The translations under genes were made by a program, and so were the position numbers. Positions 37,110-45,603 of a stretch of DNA of 64,000 bases are shown here, in pieces (positions within the stretch are counted from its first letter, which is position 1; each line of letters opens with the position of its first letter). The DNA comes from Strobilurus pachycystidiatus. Lineage: Eukaryota > Basidiomycota > Agaricomycetes > Agaricales > Physalacriaceae. Under the pieces are notes generated by a model. That model saw nothing but the letters and a program-made list of their open reading frames with translations. It did not search any database and was not told the origin of the DNA. Location of the stretch: positions 1-64,000 of the forward strand of contig JAHLMK010000036.1 of NCBI GenBank assembly GCA_019915135.1, in the 5' to 3' direction.

Positions 37110-37453
37110 AAGATGAAGGTCATCATCGAGAGATTCGCAGGTGCAGAAAATGATACCCACCGAAAGAGTCCTTTGGATCGCACGAACATCGGCCTGTCGT
37201 CCCCTGGTCTTCCTGTGGACGGTGCTGGAAGTGTTCGTGGCAGTATCCTATGTCGCAGAAGAAGTGTATCTGGTCGCGAAGCGCAAAGATGGTAGCGGCG
37301 ATCAAATGTATGGGCGCATCGCCCCAGCACTGCCAATCGTCAATACGGAGACAATGTTCCATCATAGAGAAGACGCACCTCGTAGTAAAGCCCTCATTAT
37401 TCTCCAGATAATTGAAGAGGGTCCTGATATTGCTGCGCCAGAAGTCGAGATCT
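37110..37453 (-). pseudogene. Alpha-1,2-mannosyltransferase (GT15, KRE2/MNT1 type), 3' part
   Basis: The minus strand reads DLDFWRSNIRTLFNYLENNE, GFYYE, a 49-bp GT-AG intron, CWGDAPIHLIAATIFALRDQ, IHFFCDIGYCHEHFQHRPQ and CSCDPKDSF. This is the C-terminal catalytic region of KRE2/MNT1-family enzymes, which extend O- and N-linked mannose chains in the Golgi. The usual FYYERWGDAP has Cys for Arg. The upstream half lies at 45604-46430: the gene is split by an 8.15-kb nested insertion flanked by GAGATCT. Confidence 0.85.
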
Positions 37454-37895
37454 AGACATGACCACGAATAAGGAGTAAAGGAGAATATTCATGAATATAT
37501 TCTTAATCTTATTCATGAATATGAATATGACAAATATATTATATTCGTGAATAAGAATAAGTTGACGAATATAGAATATGAACCTTTAAGTTCACATAAT
37601 CCTCAACTCATTCACGAGTGTCTGACAATACTGAATTCACAGTACTAAAGACAAGTTTATGATAAATTTAGATGCTGTTTGAATGATTTATAGGTCATTC
37701 AATAACTTTAACTGTGGATTATACTCGTATATTCGTGAATATTCATGAATAAAAGCGAAATATTCGCAGTGAAGATTAAGTTGACAAATAAGCTTAAGAG
37801 TATATTCATGAATAACAATTATGACCCTTGGAGGGGGGATTATTCGTGTGCATGAATAAGAATATACTCGAATATATATTCGTGGACATCTCTAT
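37454..37895. mobile_element. AT-rich miniature element inserted in the GT15 gene
   Basis: About 443 bp once the nested hAT is removed (37454-37895 plus one base at 45603). Termini share AGA-ATG-CCACGAATA (left AGACATGACCACGAATA; right, inverted, AGAGATGTCCACGAATA). The host gene carries GAGATCT on both sides (37447-37453 and 45604-45610). The interior repeats the palindrome-like motif ATTCATGAAT or ATTCGTGAAT many times. The hAT element inserted into its right terminal repeat. Confidence 0.7.
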
Positions 37896-38110
37896 TAGAG
37901 TCCCCAACGAGTATATACCCGAGTATCGCAATACCCTACCTGCAAGGGATTCACACACTCACAGTCTGGCCCAACCCATACCCGTTACCCGAGTACAACT
38001 TAAGCGGGTACGAGTATGGGTAAGTAACGAGTATGATGAATATATATCCGGGTATCACCCTACTCGAGTATTAGAGCAGGTACCCGGCGAGTATACACGT
38101 AAAATCAGCT
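37896..38110. repeat. hAT left terminus and subterminal motif array
   Basis: Starts with the 17-bp terminal repeat. It is followed by about nine copies, in both orientations, of a motif near TACCCGAGTA (for example tacccgagtatcg, gttacccgagtac, actcgagta, cgagtata). The matching right array is at 45420-45594. Such clusters normally bind the BED zinc finger of the transposase. Confidence 0.8.
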
Positions 38111-38210
38111 ATGTAACATGGTGCAAGTAGATATAAAGCCGTGAATATATAACGAAAGTCTTAGCTGGTAATGTAGTAGTGATATGAAGAATGTCTGTAC
38201 AGGCGCGAGA

Positions 38211-41200
38211 TTAAGTAGCGTCAGTAACGACGGGGTCATCACGCTTCCGCTTACGCTTATCATTGAGTACCTTGATAACCTTGTTGACAGGAACGTGACC
38301 GTCCTTGACCCAACCGTTCATCAGCGTCTGCGCTGCCGTCGTCTGTTCCTTGAGATTATGGCGTTTCTTCGTCACATTAAGACCACCGTGCGAGAATAGA
38401 CGTTCAACATCAGTTGACGCAGCTACAAATTATATCAAACAATGGCAAGACATAGGATGGCCACAACGTACCTGGAGCAGATATAAAGTCGCAAGCCATC
38501 TGGGCAAACGCACCACCTGGTGTAATCTCTCGTTCACCCTCCTCGGGAATGGGATCAAGCAGATCGTAGAAGTAGCGAAGCGGGTCGGAACATGTGAAAC
38601 ACGGAGACGACAGCCAGTCCTCAACGGGATTAGCAGTATATCGGGTGTCCGCGGGCTTTGCGCGAAGGAGTTTTTCGACAGCACTAAGCGGCTCGTCAGT
38701 GGAAGTGGCGGCAGGTATGGCAGATGCAGAGGTGGTGACGCGGGGTCTGTAGTACGTATTGTATGTGTCGCGCATGATGTTTGAGGCAGTTACGATCCAC
38801 TCCACCTCCCAATTGTGAGCACGGAACCATTCAAGTTTTTTGTCCGGGCGTAACACTAAAGATAAGTTAGCATTTGAGAACCGGGATAAAGAAAGAGACG
38901 TACTCATTGCCATGCGTGGCATTATGCTGTCGTCCGTGAGAGCATAGTACTTATTCAAGATGGCGCGCACACGCATAGCCGCATAGCGAATAGCAAGCCT
39001 GTATTCACCCTTGAGATTGGCGATGACGGCTTCGTAATCGGTATTCATGGCGTCCATGAGAGGTATGATGTCGTGTAAGAGGGGAACGGCGGACTTGGAC
39101 ATACGTTCCGTTATATCTATGAGGGGCTGTCAAAGGATGAGGAGAATGTTAAACGGACAACAAAACAAACAAACCTTTGAGAGAGTGTGTAGCTGTTTGA
39201 GGAAGTGCCAATCCTCCTCATCTAAAGCATATCGCTTTAATGTGCGTGCTTGCTTCTTCCCCTTGCCCTTGCGAAGAGCCTGGCACATGGCATCAATGGC
39301 GGGGCGAAGTTCAAGGGCACGGGCAATGACATTGGTGTGGGTGTTCCAGCGAGTGACAACGGCGCGGATCATCTTGAGGACGGCAATGCGCTTCGCTTTG
39401 CACATTTCTGCAAGTTCGTTCTGGAGGGCCTGCTTGTTCCAAACACGACGGCCAAACTTGTACAACTACTCAAGAATTAGTGAGGCATGAGCGCGCTGAT
39501 GAGGTTACATACCTTCGTCAAGACGGACTTCCCATACGCAATTTCATCCTGATCAACATCCTGCAGCTCCTCAAGGCCAAAAAGAATATCGTCGAGCTCC
39601 TCGTCAGCCATATCCTGCATCGCCTTTTGCAAACTATTGAGGACGGCGTCTTCATCATCCTCCTCGCGGTTGGGTTCCCCGCCAGCGTCCTCTTCATCAT
39701 CCTGATCGCCATCTTCCTCAGCTTCTTCGCGTGAGAGTGAGAAAGGATCCTCTTCGTCGGGATGGGTGTCGGCGTCAGCATGCTCGTCGACTTTGATAGC
39801 TTTTTTGGTCTTGATGAAGGTGCCGTAGATGGCTTGACTGATGAGGTTGCATATATGACCAGCACAGCGGATGCGAGTGTCAGACCCAAAGATATGGTTT
39901 GCTGGGAGCTTGAGGTTCATGGCCGACACGAATGTGTTGTTGTTCGAGGCATTGTCACCCGCCGAACTCAACAACTACGAACTAACGTAAGAACAAGACC
40001 AGAGGAATAGAGAAGCAGCGTACCCTGTCAAGAAGTTCGTACCAGTCAAGCGCGTCATACGCAACGTCGGCGAGATAGTCGCCAGTGTGTGATTTCTTAA
40101 GCCTGAGGGGAATGTTAGAGAGGGGAGAATGAATTGAACCAGGATACTTACGGGAGCATATCAAGACCAGTTACGGTCATCTTTCCTTTGTAGCAGAACG
40201 CCACCAGCAGGCCGAGGACATCCCCGCCGTTGGGAGCCGCCCATCCATCAAAGATCAGATGCAGCGCACCACCAAATGACTAGGGAAATCATGAGTATTG
40301 TCCATTCGAAGGCACGGGGGATGAACGCACATGTAGAAACTTCTTCAACTCATCCTTGGTCATGCGAGCGATCTCGTTCAGATCCGAGGAGACCGTAGTT
40401 GCGCACGGGATCAAGGCGGCCGCCTTTGCGTCGAACATCTCGATAATCTCGCGGAAGGGACCATCCTCGCAGATGAGAAATGGACGATGATTGACGGCGG
40501 CCCATTTGGCGAGCAGCCACCGAAGCTTGCCAGTGGAGAAGGTACTCCCCTTTGCAAACGCCTCGACCGTCGTCTGCGTCTCGCCAGCATCTGCAGTCTT
40601 CTTGGCACGGCAGTTATTGATGTGTTTGTGGAGATTGGAGGTGCCGTAGTCGTTGCATTTGCGATGCGCATAGGTGGACTCGTCACTAAGGGTATGTTAG
40701 CAGCCGGTCAGATACAAAACAAAGATACGCACTAGCGACAGGTGAATTCTTGATACCAGTCAAAGTCACCGCGAATTTTCATCCAGCGGATAAGAACGGT
40801 TTCCTTCGGAAGAAAGTGCTTGTAAGCGGCGGACGTCCAAGAAGCATCCTCTGGAGGACATTAGTATGTAGCCTTGAGGGAGACAGACAAGAGCTTACTC
40901 ATTGCTTTCTCCAATTTGACACGCTGCTGAGCGCGAGTCTCCGGCGCAGACGAGATAGTCTCTCCATCCTCTTTGTCGTCTTCGAGTATGATGATTGGTT
41001 CGGGAGTGGGGGTTGCCTTCCGCTTCTTGCGCGCCTTGGGGCGCTTCTTTACTTTACTGGGCGCCGCTGTGTCGTCGTCTTCGAGATCGGAGGCAGCTTT
41101 GTCGGTAAGCGTCTTCTTCTTACGTTTCGCGGCGGGTGGTGGGTCGGGGTCCTCTTCGCTGGATTCTGCGTCGGATCCTGCGTCTGAAGCTGGTCCGTCA

Positions 41201-41265
41201 GCCGGCCGCTTGGCGCGAGGAGCGGAGGTTTTCTTTTGGGAAGATAGGGAGGCGGAGGGTTTCAT
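38211..41265 (-). CDS. hAT-family transposase (872 aa, ten exons)
   Basis: Minus-strand exons: 41265-40899, 40850-40733, 40685-40331, 40279-40152, 40102-40024, 39974-39513, 39465-39175, 39126-38904, 38855-38472, 38422-38211. All nine introns are about 46-51 bp GT-AG, and the joined frame is open to TAA. Layout: a Lys/Arg- and acid-rich N-terminus (residues 1-120); a BED-like zinc finger (C160, C172, H181, H183, C187); the RNase H-like core with IFDGW (Asp 291) and AGDNASNN (Asp 356); an acidic insert (about 395-450); and a C-terminal hAT dimerisation block STDVERLFSHGGL from about residue 803. It cuts and pastes DNA bearing the element's terminal repeats. The presumed catalytic Glu lies between residues 600 and 730 and was not fixed. 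No internal damage was seen. Confidence 0.9.
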
Positions 41266-41671
41266 TTTCCTGCGGCGGGTACGTTTAGTCAGGTAGAGAT
41301 ACGCGAGGGGGGTTATACATACATGAGAACGAGAAGTCTATGAATGAACGTGTCCGGAAATGAATGGAGCGACCTATGGTGCAGGTCAGGAAAAGTCGGA
41401 GGCGGGCGGTGAAAAAAAAACATACCAAAGGGCGCGCAAAGATTAGAGAGGTGTATGGTAACAGATGCGTTGATAGGCCAAAGGATAACTAGAAGATAGA
41501 TCAGAGCGTCCCAGTAACAATGTGCGCCACATACCGAGTTGCCAACGCTGACACGCAAAGTGCCGCTGGACGAGCTAACCCGCCCCTACTCAGATCCTCC
41601 CACCGAGTCACTCAATGCCTGCTGCCCTTCCTCCCAGAATTCTCCCGCCCTTGAAACCGAACCCGACAGCA

Positions 41672-42181
41672 ACAGACGATAAGTCTGCACTGGCAATGAG
41701 CTGAACTCGGCAATGAGTCGAGTTCAGAAGCTGCAGCGAAGATAATTCGCGCAGCTGTGAGGGTACGCACCACTGGCAATAAGTCAGTGGCGGGCCAAGA
41801 GGTGTTGAGAAGGGGGCGGCGGGGCGGTCGTGGTGGGAGTATGCCTGAAGAAGGGATCGGGACTCGAACGTTTCAAGTCCAGCTTGCCGAAATGCCGTGC
41901 CACCAGCCACAAACAAATTTGTGGCTGGTGGCACGGCATTTCGGCCAAGGCGTGCACAGGACTTGGACGTCCTAATCGGGTCCATCACCCATCTCTGGTT
42001 TCTGCCCACCACCATCCCGCCGCCCGCCCCGTCGCCTCTGTCCTTGCTGACGCCGCCCGTCGTCACTGACTTATTGCCAGTGGCGATTCCTCTCATTGCT
42101 GCGCGAATTATCTTCGCTGCAGCTCCTGAACTCGACTCATTGCCGAGTTCAGCTCATTGCCAGTGCAGACTTATCGTCTGT
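41672..42181. repeat. 510-bp palindromic fold-back inside the hAT
   Basis: The outer arms are 84 bp with one mismatch (left starts ACAGACGATAAG, right ends CTTATCGTCTGT). The core at 41886-41945 has two perfect 28-bp arms around a 4-nt loop (caaa). Arms between are partly conserved. The phrase GGCAATGAGT or GGCAATAAGT recurs in both orientations. It lies between the divergent starts of the transposase and the accessory gene, so it also occupies their shared promoter zone. No target duplication was found, so it may be a nested fold-back element or a built-in part of the hAT. Confidence 0.85.
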
Positions 42182-42687
42182 CACTTTGCCGCCGCGGACG
42201 CTCATTCTCCGGACAATCGGGATCGGACTGTTATTGGTGGCGCGGAGGGCGGCCCTTATTTTGATCCAGGTGCGTACCTTTCCTATTTGACCTGTATGGG
42301 CGCGTGGGCGTCAACTGATTCGATCGCGCCTATCTGCAGCTCCCATCGCGCCCACCCCACAATCTGGTATGTACATTTACGCATCATTGTCCGTTCAATA
42401 ATGGACTCATTCCCACCTCTCATCATTGCAGAACACCGCGCTCGCTCTGGACATATTCCGAAGAACAGATTGTACCCTCCTGCTGCCAGGTGCGTCTTTG
42501 ACAATGACATCTCCGTAACCCAACTTATAATTGCCAGTTCACTGCATTCCTTTGGCGCCGAGGCGGACCATATTAAGTCGGGCCTCAACACACCACACCA
42601 ATATTCCCGTTTCTGTGCGTATTTCACTCCCACCAATTCGCAGTTCAAACTAACACTTATTCTGCTAGATTATCAACTCGCTGCACC

Positions 42688-45078
42688 ATGTCCAGCTCCT
42701 CATCTCATCCCGCGTCATCATCCACACCCGCCGTCGCCAGCGCTTCACGTGTCAGATACGCCCCGCTCAAGTCTTACGAGGGCAAAGTGGGCTACTTCGA
42801 TGAAGCGGAACGCATGTTCATCACCTCGCCCAATTGCGAGTACATCGAGCTCCCGCCATATCCTCGCGAAGACCATACGACGATGATGCTTCGGGACCGA
42901 CATTTTGGTCACGACGACCCACTGTATCACCCTCAGCCATTTGACTATTCCGTCGCCCATCTAGCCCTCATCCGCCACCCCTCCAAACTCCAACATACAG
43001 ACGAACTCCTGTGGCACCTCCCAGGAGAGTCCCATTTCGAGCGCGTCAAGCTGGGAGACGCCTCGTCTGGTCTTGGTACCATTGACCGCCCATTTTGCGA
43101 TGTTTTGAGGGATCATTGGCGGCGAGTGAAGAAGCGCCTTGCAGAGGAGAACACAAAGCAAGCGGGGACCGACGACCAGGGCAAGCTGATGAGCGATCCG
43201 TACCTGCAAGACGTTTTCCCTCGCATGAAGTATCTTGCGGGGCGCCTCGATATACCTTCCAGTTACGACGAAGCAGTCATGGTGTGGTGCATGCTCCAGC
43301 GGCTCATCCTCGAGGTCGAGGCGCGCATGACTTGGCTGCTCGAAGTGCGGGCCATCTTTCGCGACGTGACTGCGAAACGGGTTGGTGTGCGAAATGTTGT
43401 CGGTGCTGTAACCGACCAGAAGGACATTGCGGACAGTTTGTATCGAGTATGTGTCTCTTTTGTCGATGTCTGGGGTTTCACTAATCTGATCCTTAGGCCG
43501 GTGTTCCTATCTGGCTCTGTCGGCCCATTGGTGCTGAAGAGGGTGTCAGAGTCGACAGCTGGGTGACGTACCCGCCGGACATGCGCCCCAAGGACTTCGT
43601 CGTCTCGTACAACCATGCAACTCCTCCCCACCCAATCGTATTCGAGGGGAGTGTTGCCTCTCTCGAACGTTATCGCGGCATGGCACACTACATCAGAAAG
43701 CTCGCCTCACCACCCGACTTCTTCTCCAACAAGAGTGGAGTCGCCATTCTTCCTTCGTTGTCAACATCTTCCACCACCACCACCTCCAAAAAACGAACTT
43801 ATTCGGCTCGGTCGCGTCCTGCTTTGACGTCTCCCACCGTCCCCGATTCTCTGCCATCCGCTGCAGGACCTTCGCGTCTGAGATCCACGGCCCAGAGCCA
43901 CACACCATGTAAGTCTTGATCTATTCAATGCTAACCTAGCTAACTCGAACTTTGCAGATCCACTACCTCCGCGCCCCACTACCCTCAAGCCGAAAGGACC
44001 GCCTACCCTTCAACGCGATAAGTTCGTTGATGTCCACACGCCTCTTATGCCCCGTTCGGTTGGAAGTTGGACGACAGCTCTGGGTCGCGTCAAGGCGGAT
44101 ACCGCCCATTCGCCGCGAGTCATTCCTGCTGAGGGTGTCAATGCCGGCTACGCTCTCCCCGATCCCAACGTTATCGCTGGCGTCGACAAGGACCACACGC
44201 GCGGGTACATGTTCACCGCCTATGTCCGGCTTCGGCACATCCTCCACTATCGCATGCAGTCGGACGCCTTCGAACCTTTGAATGCCATGGCGTGGAGGCG
44301 AATTCTGGGCATTGAGCTCCACCCAAGCGAGGGAGAAGGGCGGTCGAGGGTACAACATCAGGAGATGAAGAAGGATCTGTGTGACTGCATCGAGAAGGGC
44401 GGTCTTCAAGTGCGTAATTGCTAACTCACGGAATCATTCCTGATCTTTTTGCAGGGTACCGTGGACATCTCCAACCTGAGACACTCCCTCGTTAATTGGC
44501 GCGGGACCGAATTGGAACAAAATCGAGTTCCACCCCCCCGGATCGGCAAAGAGATCCTTTGGGAGCTCTTCGAGATCAATTTCCGCGTTGAGCTCCTCAC
44601 CCTCGACCGCCACTGCTACACACTCAAACCGGAAGGCTTTGCCGAGGCCGTCATGGATGTCGATGTCGACGCAGGGGAACCGGAGCCGGGAGAGTATGTG
44701 GAGAGCCAAAGCTTTGACGACTTGGATGCCTCCTCCCACGCGGATCGACAACTTCGAGTACTCGGTGCCATGAGTTACTGGGAGAGCAGTCTCATCCCCG
44801 GCGTTTTCAAGGACATCGAGGACGAGGGATTCGGCTCGCAGTGGCATCCGGAGCGTCGACGGGCATTCGGAGACTTGTTCCGGGTGATGCGAGGGTGGCG
44901 TGGCGTTCCCGAGATGGATGCAGCCACGGTCAAAGCAGCGACAAAGTGTCTCGGGGAGAGGTCGCTGGACCTTGGAGAGCAACTCGTCGCCGAAGACCGC
45001 CTGGCCCATCATTACGTTCGATGCTTCTATAAGATCTTTGGACGTCCACCTCTTGTACCACACGGCCTCCGCGATTGA
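42688..45078 (+). CDS. hAT-borne accessory gene, unknown function (748 aa)
   Basis: Exons are 42688-43446, 43497-43908, 43958-44409 and 44455-45078, with introns of 45-50 bp GT-AG and an open frame to TGA. Start context: ATG followed by a Ser-rich N-terminus. The first 340 residues look globular, helical and tryptophan-rich (YDEAVMVWCMLQRLILEVEA). Next comes a Ser/Thr/Pro/Arg-rich linker, then a second globular half (YALPDPNVIAGVDKDHTRGY, WELFEINFRVELL) with an acidic patch (DVDVDAGEPEPGE). No signal peptide, membrane span or catalytic motif recognised. From memory it resembles an uncharacterised multi-copy agaricomycete family. Its position inside an intact transposon, transcribed away from the transposase, suggests a job for the element (regulation, target choice or host defence), but that is inference. 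Confidence 0.85.
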
Positions 45079-45290
45079 CACTACACTTTACAGACTTTTT
45101 TTTACTTATATCTTGACTCTTGGTCCGCTACCATTACGATACGCATACTCGTCGCCTCTACGCTCCGCCGGCGGATTTATATTTGTATTATTACTACATG
45201 TGATCTTGGACTTTCGAATTTTTTTTTTTGTTAATGGCTTGATAGAAGAACAATGTCATAACTTATTGCATGTGGAGGCAAGGCATTCAT

Positions 45291-45387
45291 CGCCGTTTGG
45301 CCTAATGGTAACACGCCCTCGTCTGTTGGTTCTCAACGTGAAAATGGCTGGAACTCTGCGGGTTCGATTCTCGTAGGGTTCATTTTG
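45291..45387 (+). ncRNA. tRNA-like sequence with Pol III A and B boxes
   Basis: Contains an A-box-like TGGCCTAATGG at 45298 and a B-box-like GGTTCGATTC at 45361 with a plausible T-arm, then TTTT at 45383. The 5' and 3' acceptor strands pair poorly and the anticodon arm is irregular, so this is not a normal tRNA. It is more likely a tRNA pseudogene or a tRNA-derived short element. It lies inside the hAT, downstream of the accessory gene. Confidence 0.35.
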
Positions 45388-45419
45388 TTACAATGCCTTG
45401 GGTCTACTCACAATACTAA

Positions 45420-45594
45420 TAAAAGTGGGGCAAGTATCAACGGGTATCCGGCAGACCAGCCTCTTGGCCCGATACTTACTCGGTACCCGGGTGTCGCATA
45501 CCCGAGTATTCTTTAGCACCCGAGTAAGGGTCTACCCGGATAGAGGTGTTGTACTCGGGTATACCCGTTTTCGCAGCACTCGTTGGGGACTCTA
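45420..45594. repeat. hAT right terminus and subterminal motif array
   Basis: Mirror of the left array: repeated CCCGAGTA/TACTCGGGT motifs (for example catacccgagtattc, gcacccgagtaagg, tactcgggtataccc). It ends in the inverted terminal repeat at 45578-45594. Confidence 0.8.
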
Positions 45595-45603
45595 ATCTCT
45601 ATT

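What the first reader, a model, noticed from the sequence alone, without database searches (positions are those of the whole stretch)
37896..45594. Intact two-gene hAT transposon carrying an unknown 748-residue protein
Seen: 17-bp terminal inverted repeats, a perfect 8-bp duplication ATCTCTAT, a ten-exon transposase with all phases consistent, and a divergent four-exon gene also without damage. Known: hAT elements usually encode only a transposase with a BED finger and a hAT dimerisation domain. Inference: the second gene is a co-mobilised accessory factor. That would make this a composite element class in which an uncharacterised fungal protein family travels with a hAT transposase.
Basis: partly seen in the sequence, partly recalled or inferred. 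Interest (0 to 1): 0.85.

Follow-up and report, generated by a model that had tools for sequence, protein, structure and literature searches.

The report
Two-gene hAT transposons sharing a cassette
A mushroom genome holds a family of jumping genes that carry, besides the usual jumping enzyme, a second gene of unknown function inside a conserved cassette that appears to have been swapped between distantly related jumping genes, which suggests it gives them a general advantage such as escaping the host's silencing.

Summary
Window 37896-45594 is an intact 7,699-bp hAT element: 17-bp perfect TIRs, perfect 8-bp TSD, a ten-exon 872-aa transposase and, head-to-head, a four-exon 748-aa second gene ('acc') with no Pfam match. 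It is a class, not a one-off: seven TIR-to-TIR copies of the family in this genome hold both genes, five with distinct perfect TSDs; three elements of two other subfamilies, with ~33% identical transposases, hold both genes between their own TIRs and TSDs. Of 31 acc loci, 27 have a hAT transposase head-to-head. Acc travels with a ~510-bp imperfect palindrome (28 of 28 genomic matches lie 5' of acc) and a tRNA-T-arm-like hairpin with covariation 3' of it; dN/dS of acc is ~0.12. Transposase and acc trees conflict at 100% bootstrap, so acc was probably exchanged between hAT lineages. Subterminal motifs differ between subfamilies while acc is ~80% identical, so a host-facing role is likelier than end-binding; the one old copy examined decayed mainly by CpG transitions, so I favour anti-silencing (inference). 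Relatives occur in Marasmius, Lentinula, Rhodocollybia and Cylindrobasidium; their context could not be tested. No solved fold was matched.

The parts
37888..37895 (.). left target site duplication ATCTCTAT
   Evidence: read directly; its first 7 bases are the end of an older MITE
37896..37912 (+). left TIR TAGAGTCCCCAACGAGT
37913..38120 (.). subterminal repeat array, motif ACCCGAGTA / CGGGTA
   Evidence: ACCCGAGTA in A only; other motifs dominate in B and D
38211..41265 (-). hAT transposase gene, ten exons, 872 aa, intact
   Evidence: PF05699 E 8e-5
41667..42190 (.). about 510-bp imperfect palindrome between the two genes; arms 41672-41792 / 42061-42181 93% complementary, inner perfect hairpin 41886-41913 / 41918-41945
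   Evidence: 28 of 28 genomic places matched lie 5' of an acc gene
42688..45078 (+). accessory gene 'acc', four exons, 748 aa, no Pfam match at E<=10
45282..45388 (+). conserved tRNA-like element: A-box-like and B-box-like motifs (names recalled) and TTTT; hairpin 45351-45381 with a TTCRANN loop
45390..45577 (.). right subterminal repeat array
45578..45594 (-). right TIR
45595..45602 (.). right target site duplication ATCTCTAT

Best explanation
The element is an autonomous cut-and-paste hAT transposon that mobilises itself with its own transposase and carries an accessory cassette: a palindromic region between two divergent genes (probably a shared bidirectional promoter), the acc gene, and a tRNA-T-arm-like RNA element after it. 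SHOWN: both genes lie between TIRs and TSDs in several copies and subfamilies; the three cassette parts occur together and the two non-coding ones were found only beside acc; acc is under purifying selection; acc has a different tree from the transposases it travels with. INFERRED: recombination between hAT elements in one genome put acc, or the cassette piece by piece, onto other transposases. INFERRED, less certain: acc works independently of the element's ends, most likely by countering host silencing (CpG methylation/heterochromatin), with the palindrome as its control region and the RNA/B-box element as a pol III unit or chromatin boundary. I put about 0.9 on the two-gene class, about 0.8 on exchange (lowered from 0.9 on checking, because palindrome and acc trees also differ from each other), and about 0.35 on anti-silencing.
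For: Seven TIR-to-TIR family-A copies with both genes; TSDs ATCTCTAT, CTTCTGGT, CTTCTTCA, TCTAGTGT, AACCGTAC perfect in 5 of 7. L029 (TSD GGAATGAG), L030 (GTCTGGCT), L034 (GTACAATC) also enclose both genes. 27 of 31 acc loci head-to-head with a hAT transposase. Palindrome: 28 of 28 matched places next to acc; tRNA-like element: 19 of 22 within 270 bp 3' of acc. acc dN/dS 0.10-0.16 between lineages. Transposase tree AB|CD 100%, acc tree AD|BC 100% on protein and DNA; fourfold-site identity is higher in acc than in transposase for all six pairs among A-D. Dominant subterminal motifs differ. Hairpin: 4 of 12 pairs with compensatory changes, 0 of 500 shuffles. Old copy L016: 91 of 155 substitutions are C>T or G>A at CpG, as from methylation.
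Against: No direct evidence for function: no significant Pfam, PDB-sequence or fold match. 16 of 43 hand-merged hAT transposase clusters have no acc partner, so acc is not universally needed (several are fragments and at least one is probably the split half of a paired element). The palindrome tree (D+A2 88%, plus B 95%) and the tree of the first 245 acc codons (A2 with B and C, 99%) agree neither with each other nor with one block moving as a whole. CpG decay is general to methylated repeats and does not show that acc counters it. Marasmius oreades has an active hAT with only a transposase reported, MarorhAT-10 (PMC9674265), so hATs can move without acc. dS values near 1 and above are rough, and nothing shows that either gene is expressed.
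Confidence: 0.5

Rival explanations
1. Acc is a direct transposition partner of the transposase (end binding, synapsis, nuclear import or target choice), like the second proteins of MuDR or En/Spm (recalled).
For: Fixed head-to-head arrangement with a hAT transposase in 27 of 31 loci; both genes diverge from one palindrome. The TIRs of A, B and D are partly alike (TAGA at the start, ACGAGT further in on at least one side), and CGAGTA is frequent in the ends of both A and D, so some shared end feature exists.
Against: Acc is 76-83% identical across A-D whose transposases are 31-54% identical and whose dominant subterminal motifs differ; acc and transposase trees conflict, which a tight partner would make less likely.
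Confidence: 0.27
2. No exchange: one ancestral two-gene element diversified, and acc simply evolves more slowly than the transposase.
For: Same gene order and orientation in the 27 paired loci; acc under stronger constraint.
Against: Conflicting topologies at 100% bootstrap; fourfold sites are also more alike in acc than in transposase; palindrome groups A2 with D although A2's transposase is 74% identical to A's.
Confidence: 0.13
3. Acc is a captured host gene carried as a passenger without function for the element.
For: hAT elements can carry host fragments (recalled); one divergent locus on C20 has no detectable transposase.
Against: Purifying selection across subfamilies, intact four-exon frames in L029, L030 and L031, conserved palindrome and RNA element beside acc.
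Confidence: 0.06
4. Acc is a diverged TET/JBP dioxygenase or another known transposon-borne enzyme.
For: Fungal hAT7 and KDZ elements carry TET/JBP genes (PMC12730594, abstract).
Against: No Pfam match for acc at E<=10 nor for P0007, P0005, P0008 at E<=1; no significant Foldseek match for the model of P0007, though a missing match does not exclude a fold.
Confidence: 0.03

Closest known systems
TET/JBP-carrying DNA transposons of fungi, including hAT7 of rusts (Kojima 2025, PMC12730594; abstract, passages and section 25 read)
   Same: fungal hAT and other transposons carry a second, non-transposase gene that has passed between transposon lineages; proposed to help escape methylation-based silencing
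   Different: that gene is a TET/JBP dioxygenase, the hAT7 elements make 7-bp TSDs, and in the three hAT7 families whose layout I read the gene lies in the same orientation as the transposase; here 8-bp TSDs, head-to-head genes, a protein without TET/JBP match, and conserved palindrome and RNA parts
VANDAL elements with VANC anti-silencing protein in Arabidopsis (PMC5735166, abstract and outline read)
   Same: a transposon-encoded protein that relieves silencing, the role I favour for acc
   Different: another transposon superfamily (MULE, recalled); related VANC proteins act on different sets of elements, whereas acc is nearly constant across subfamilies with different subterminal motifs; anti-silencing is shown for VANC and only inferred here
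MarorhAT-10 of Marasmius oreades (PMC9674265, passages and section 9 read)
   Same: agaricomycete hAT with DUF659/dimerisation transposase and short non-autonomous derivatives, in a genome with CpG-methylated repeats
   Different: 3,396 bp; no second gene mentioned in the passages read
Hypothetical proteins of Marasmius, Lentinula, Rhodocollybia, Cylindrobasidium (P0002-P0012)
   Same: homologous to acc: P0002 E 8e-29 with the window protein, P0003 E 3e-38 with the family profile, P0004-P0012 E 4e-47 to 6e-25 with the L033 relative
   Different: 23-35% identical, unnamed, genomic context not available here

Membership tests
hAT superfamily | 8-bp target site duplication | tested here: met
   ATCTCTAT here; perfect 8 bp in 5 of 7 family-A copies and in 3 of 6 further loci scanned
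hAT superfamily | short TIRs of YARNG type (consensus recalled) | tested here: met
   TAGAG... at both ends, 17 of 17; L029 13 of 14, L030 and L034 12 of 14
hAT superfamily | C-terminal hAT dimerisation domain | tested here: met
   PF05699 22.8 bits, cut-off 21.4; subfamily B 32 bits; subfamily D 18 bits, below cut-off
hAT superfamily | RNase H-like catalytic core (D, D, E) | tested here: inconclusive
   hAT-like motifs FDGW, GDNASNN, TRWN and ERLFSHGG are visible (motifs recalled); PF14372 only weakly in subfamily B, E 0.008, below cut-off
hAT superfamily | N-terminal BED zinc finger | tested here: inconclusive
   no Pfam match
TET+ hAT7 transposons | 7-bp TSD | tested here: not met
   8 bp
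TET+ hAT7 transposons | TET/JBP domain in the second protein | tested here: not met
   by Pfam only: no match at E<=10 in acc; none of the 4 weak families listed for the 6 members of A1 at E<=1 is TET/JBP
VANC/VANDAL | anti-silencing activity of the accessory protein | not testable with these tools
   needs experiment
tRNA gene (RNA element 3' of acc) | recognised by tRNA finders | tested here: not met
   ARAGORN none in the window nor downstream of acc in A, B, C, D, D2, E; no Rfam tRNA match at E<=1 (family A only)
tRNA-like T-arm hairpin | 12-bp stem with TTCRANN loop kept by compensatory changes | tested here: met
   11 sequences taken from 22 places; 97% of cells paired, 4 pairs changed on both sides, 0 of 500 shuffles and 0 in slid controls; 'further pair types' was reached by 70 of 500 shuffles

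The most novel reading that the evidence does not exclude
The cassette (palindromic promoter, acc, pol III-type RNA element) is a portable counter-silencing device: acc is the founder of an unrecognised class of silencing suppressor in mushrooms, autoregulated through the palindrome and insulated by the tRNA-like element, and it spreads by being swapped between otherwise distantly related hAT transposons, much as TET/JBP genes spread between transposon superfamilies.
Probability: 0.22. Interest if true: 0.9.

Novelty: new variant of a known kind. Interest (0 to 1): 0.72.

Why it matters
hAT elements are usually one-gene transposons. Here a group of them carries a conserved second gene together with a palindromic region and a structured RNA, and acc appears to have moved between transposases that are only about a third identical. 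That makes it directly testable whether transposons in mushrooms share a common tool against host defence, and gives an unnamed protein family a genetic context. If acc does counter silencing, it is an independent solution to the problem that TET/JBP and VANC proteins address.

Tried and rejected
Rejected: a chance or decayed pair of genes (copies, TSDs, selection). Rejected: the tRNA-like element as a host tRNA gene or a SINE; its 22 genomic matches all lie on the 3' side of the nearest acc locus, 19 within 270 bp and three at 2.5, 4.1 and 20.8 kb. Rejected: microRNA matches to the inner palindrome hairpin (mir-582 at 32.8 and 31.8 bits against a gathering score of 84, and three weaker ones). 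By eye, B-box-like letters in the palindrome occur in family A only, so no boundary claim is made for it.

Limits: candidates scored were 60 of 139, 60 of 142, 63 of 180, 63 of 174 and 40 of 91, so counts of loci are lower bounds. The 31 acc loci and 43 transposase clusters were merged by hand; the C36:103590 fragment was counted with C36:112557. Of six loci scanned for TIR plus TSD, three gave a pair (L030 also a second, weaker one) and L031, L032, L033 gave none; L031 and L032 were cut short or interrupted. Subfamily C (L031) lacks the transposase C-terminus; A2 (L032) is a fragment with a stop in acc and one in the transposase. D2 (L034) has internal deletions in both genes.
Full report
OBSERVATION. 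Window 37896-45594 (G000:C36, genome of 51.8 Mb in 61 contigs) is bounded by perfect 17-bp inverted repeats and a perfect 8-bp duplication ATCTCTAT. The minus-strand transposase (ten exons, 872 aa) and the plus-strand second gene, called acc here (four exons, 748 aa), are both open throughout. The transposase matches Pfam Dimer_Tnp_hAT above its cut-off; acc matches nothing at E<=10. The insertion landed on the right end of an older 442-bp hAT-type MITE (37453-37894, TIR TAGACATGACCACGAAT). Rejoining the flanks restores the MITE end and its own duplication with one mismatch, TCGAGATC/TTGAGATC, so the pre-insertion site held a single ATCTCTAT. A search with the joined flanks (394 bases) gave 40 matches: the two window flanks and 38 others, all to the last ~180 bases of the MITE at 96-99%; none of the 40 matched the right flank elsewhere, but only 40 of 91 candidates were scored.

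A CLASS IN THIS GENOME. The left end finds 25 places; twenty regions were fetched. Full-length copies at 99.84-99.97% are L010, L011, L012, L015; L016 on contig 1 is 97.7-98.2% identical with two inserts; L009, L013 and L014 were covered in part. With TIR positions and gene positions there are seven TIR-to-TIR copies holding both genes: C36:37896, C36:104781, C36:128558, C51:4732, C23:554706, C23:571114, C1:4144277. Five have distinct perfect TSDs: ATCTCTAT, CTTCTTCA, CTTCTGGT, TCTAGTGT, AACCGTAC. Two do not: L011 (C36:128558) has the right flank of L012 but another left flank, probably a recombinant, and L016 (C1). The acc frame is intact in L010, L011 and L012, and L011 and L012 also carry a full transposase (870 of 872 identical); for L010, L013 and L015 the aligner needed gaps or an extra intron in the transposase, so small indels are likely; L016 has two stops in acc.

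OTHER SUBFAMILIES. Acc has 83 matches in the genome (60 of 139 candidates scored), which I merged by hand into 31 loci. Transposase searches with three queries merged to 43 clusters. In 27 of 31 acc loci a hAT transposase lies head-to-head, 1.4-2.8 kb away. The four without are C6:2253975, C6:1375430, C20:912977 and C4:2828221. The first ends in a TAGACTTGACCACGAAT sequence like that seen 3' of acc in L031, and three of the four have the palindrome described below. Of the 43 transposase clusters 16 lack an acc partner; several are fragments, and the C9:1107545 cluster is probably the other half of a paired, interrupted one. I fetched six further loci. In L029 (subfamily B), L030 (D) and L034 (D2), TIRs and perfect TSDs (GGAATGAG, GTCTGGCT, GTACAATC) enclose both genes. 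L031 (C) and L032 (A2) were cut short or interrupted and gave no pair; L033 (E, C20) has acc but no detectable transposase in the 5 kb upstream and no pair.

THE CASSETTE. Between the two genes lies an imperfect palindrome of about 510 bp that is homologous in A, A2, B, C and D (halves aligned). A genome search finds it at 28 places (28 of 28 candidates scored); all 28 lie 5' of acc within 1 kb, and 28 of 31 acc loci have it; on C20 and C6:2253975 only ~100-120 bases match. After acc lies a ~107-bp element with A-box- and B-box-like motifs and a TTTT run (names recalled). Its 22 matches all lie on the 3' side of the nearest acc, 19 of 22 within 270 bp and the other three at 2.5, 4.1 and 20.8 kb. 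I aligned 11 of these 22 places. The 12-bp hairpin with a TTCRANN loop keeps at least 11 of 12 pairs in each of the 11 (97% of cells), with 4 pairs changed on both sides (0 of 500 shuffles, none in slid controls); the count of further pair types was reached by 70 of 500 shuffles, and some rows are close relatives. It is not a recognisable tRNA gene. Its orientation is that of acc, so it may be in the 3' UTR or be a separate pol III transcript.

EXCHANGE. Acc is 76-83% identical in protein among A, B, C and D, while the transposases are 31-54% identical. Fourfold-degenerate sites are more alike in acc than in transposase for all six pairs: A-B 0.51 against 0.36, A-C 0.49 against 0.35, A-D 0.56 against 0.28, B-C 0.52 against 0.38, B-D 0.50 against 0.42, C-D 0.44 against 0.31. 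Maximum-likelihood trees with 200 bootstraps give AB|CD at 100% for transposase (354 gap-free columns, A2 beside A) and AD|BC at 100% for acc on protein (729 columns) and on DNA (2,172). A2, whose transposase is 74% identical to A's, groups with B and C in the first 245 codons of acc (99%) but with D in the palindrome (88%, then B 95%). So acc and transposase have different histories, which I read as exchange between hAT lineages; but palindrome and acc do not share one tree either, so exchange was piecemeal or the palindrome alignment (54-69% identity, perhaps with conversion between its arms) misleads. Few lineages were available, C and A2 are partial, and dS near or above 1 is rough.

SELECTION AND AGE. 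dN/dS of acc between lineages is 0.10-0.16 (B-E not computable, saturated), 0.19 within D-D2; of the transposase 0.13-0.42 where computable. The four near-identical A copies differ from the window by 2-5 substitutions. In the old copy L016, 91 of 155 substitutions are C>T or G>A at CpG, as expected if the element was CpG-methylated. In Marasmius oreades repeats are CpG-methylated and low-methylated MarorhAT-10 copies were the likely sources of new insertions (PMC9674265, section 9).

FUNCTION. Three homolog searches returned 12 proteins: P0002 (Cylindrobasidium), P0003 (Rhodocollybia), P0004 and P0007-P0012 (Marasmius), P0005 and P0006 (Lentinula), and P0001 (no organism given). None carries a precomputed Pfam label; of the four I scanned (P0004, P0005, P0007, P0008) only P0004 had a match, sub-threshold. 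An AlphaFold model of P0007 (pLDDT 77, pTM 0.74) has a mixed alpha/beta N-terminal part and a helical C-terminal part; there was no significant match in PDB or BFVD. Dominant subterminal motifs differ: ACCCGAGTA 5 times in A and 0 in B and D; CGGATC 10 times in B and 0 in A and D; TCGGAT 17 times in D, 3 in B, 0 in A. But CGAGTA is common to A (12) and D (8), and the TIRs are partly alike. A protein that is ~80% conserved across such ends probably does not work by binding the main motifs. Together with exchange between lineages and signs of host methylation, a host-facing anti-silencing role is my first choice; a transposition partner is the main rival. TFIIIC-site boundaries are known in fission yeast (PMC4502379, start of abstract in the listing), which is the analogy behind the idea about the RNA element; it is only an analogy.

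LITERATURE. Kojima 2025 (PMC12730594; abstract, passages and section 25 read) is the closest precedent: TET/JBP genes carried and exchanged by fungal DNA transposons, including hAT7 with 7-bp TSDs. PMC5735166 (abstract and outline) describes VANC. The searches listed no title or abstract describing acc or this arrangement.

VERDICT. New here: the palindrome and covarying RNA element that accompany the gene, and the conflict between acc and transposase histories. Function remains open.

Noticed in passing
window 37453-37894: 442-bp AT-rich hAT-type MITE (TIR TAGACATGACCACGAAT ... ATTCGTGGACATCTCTA); its last ~180 bases have 38 other matches at 96-99% (40 of 91 candidates scored). Its TIR resembles that of subfamily C, which may mobilise it.
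   Followed up: partly
L018-L028 and one search places: Short derivatives, many about 540 bp, share the TIR and end sequences with the window element but matched none of its coding part.
   Followed up: partly
G000:C36 and G000:C51: Contigs rich in hAT copies, some nested; on C51 two A right flanks lie 7,749 bp apart and are identical, like a tandem duplication, and L011/L012 share their right flank only, like recombination between copies.
   Followed up: no
L033 (G000:C20:908000-916800): Most divergent acc copy (47-69% identical by exon), open frame, only part of the palindrome, no transposase or tRNA-like element found: a candidate decayed or host-retained copy.
   Followed up: partly
window 41886-41945: Perfect 28-bp hairpin near the palindrome centre; by eye its core is among the best conserved parts in the subfamilies aligned.
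   Followed up: partly
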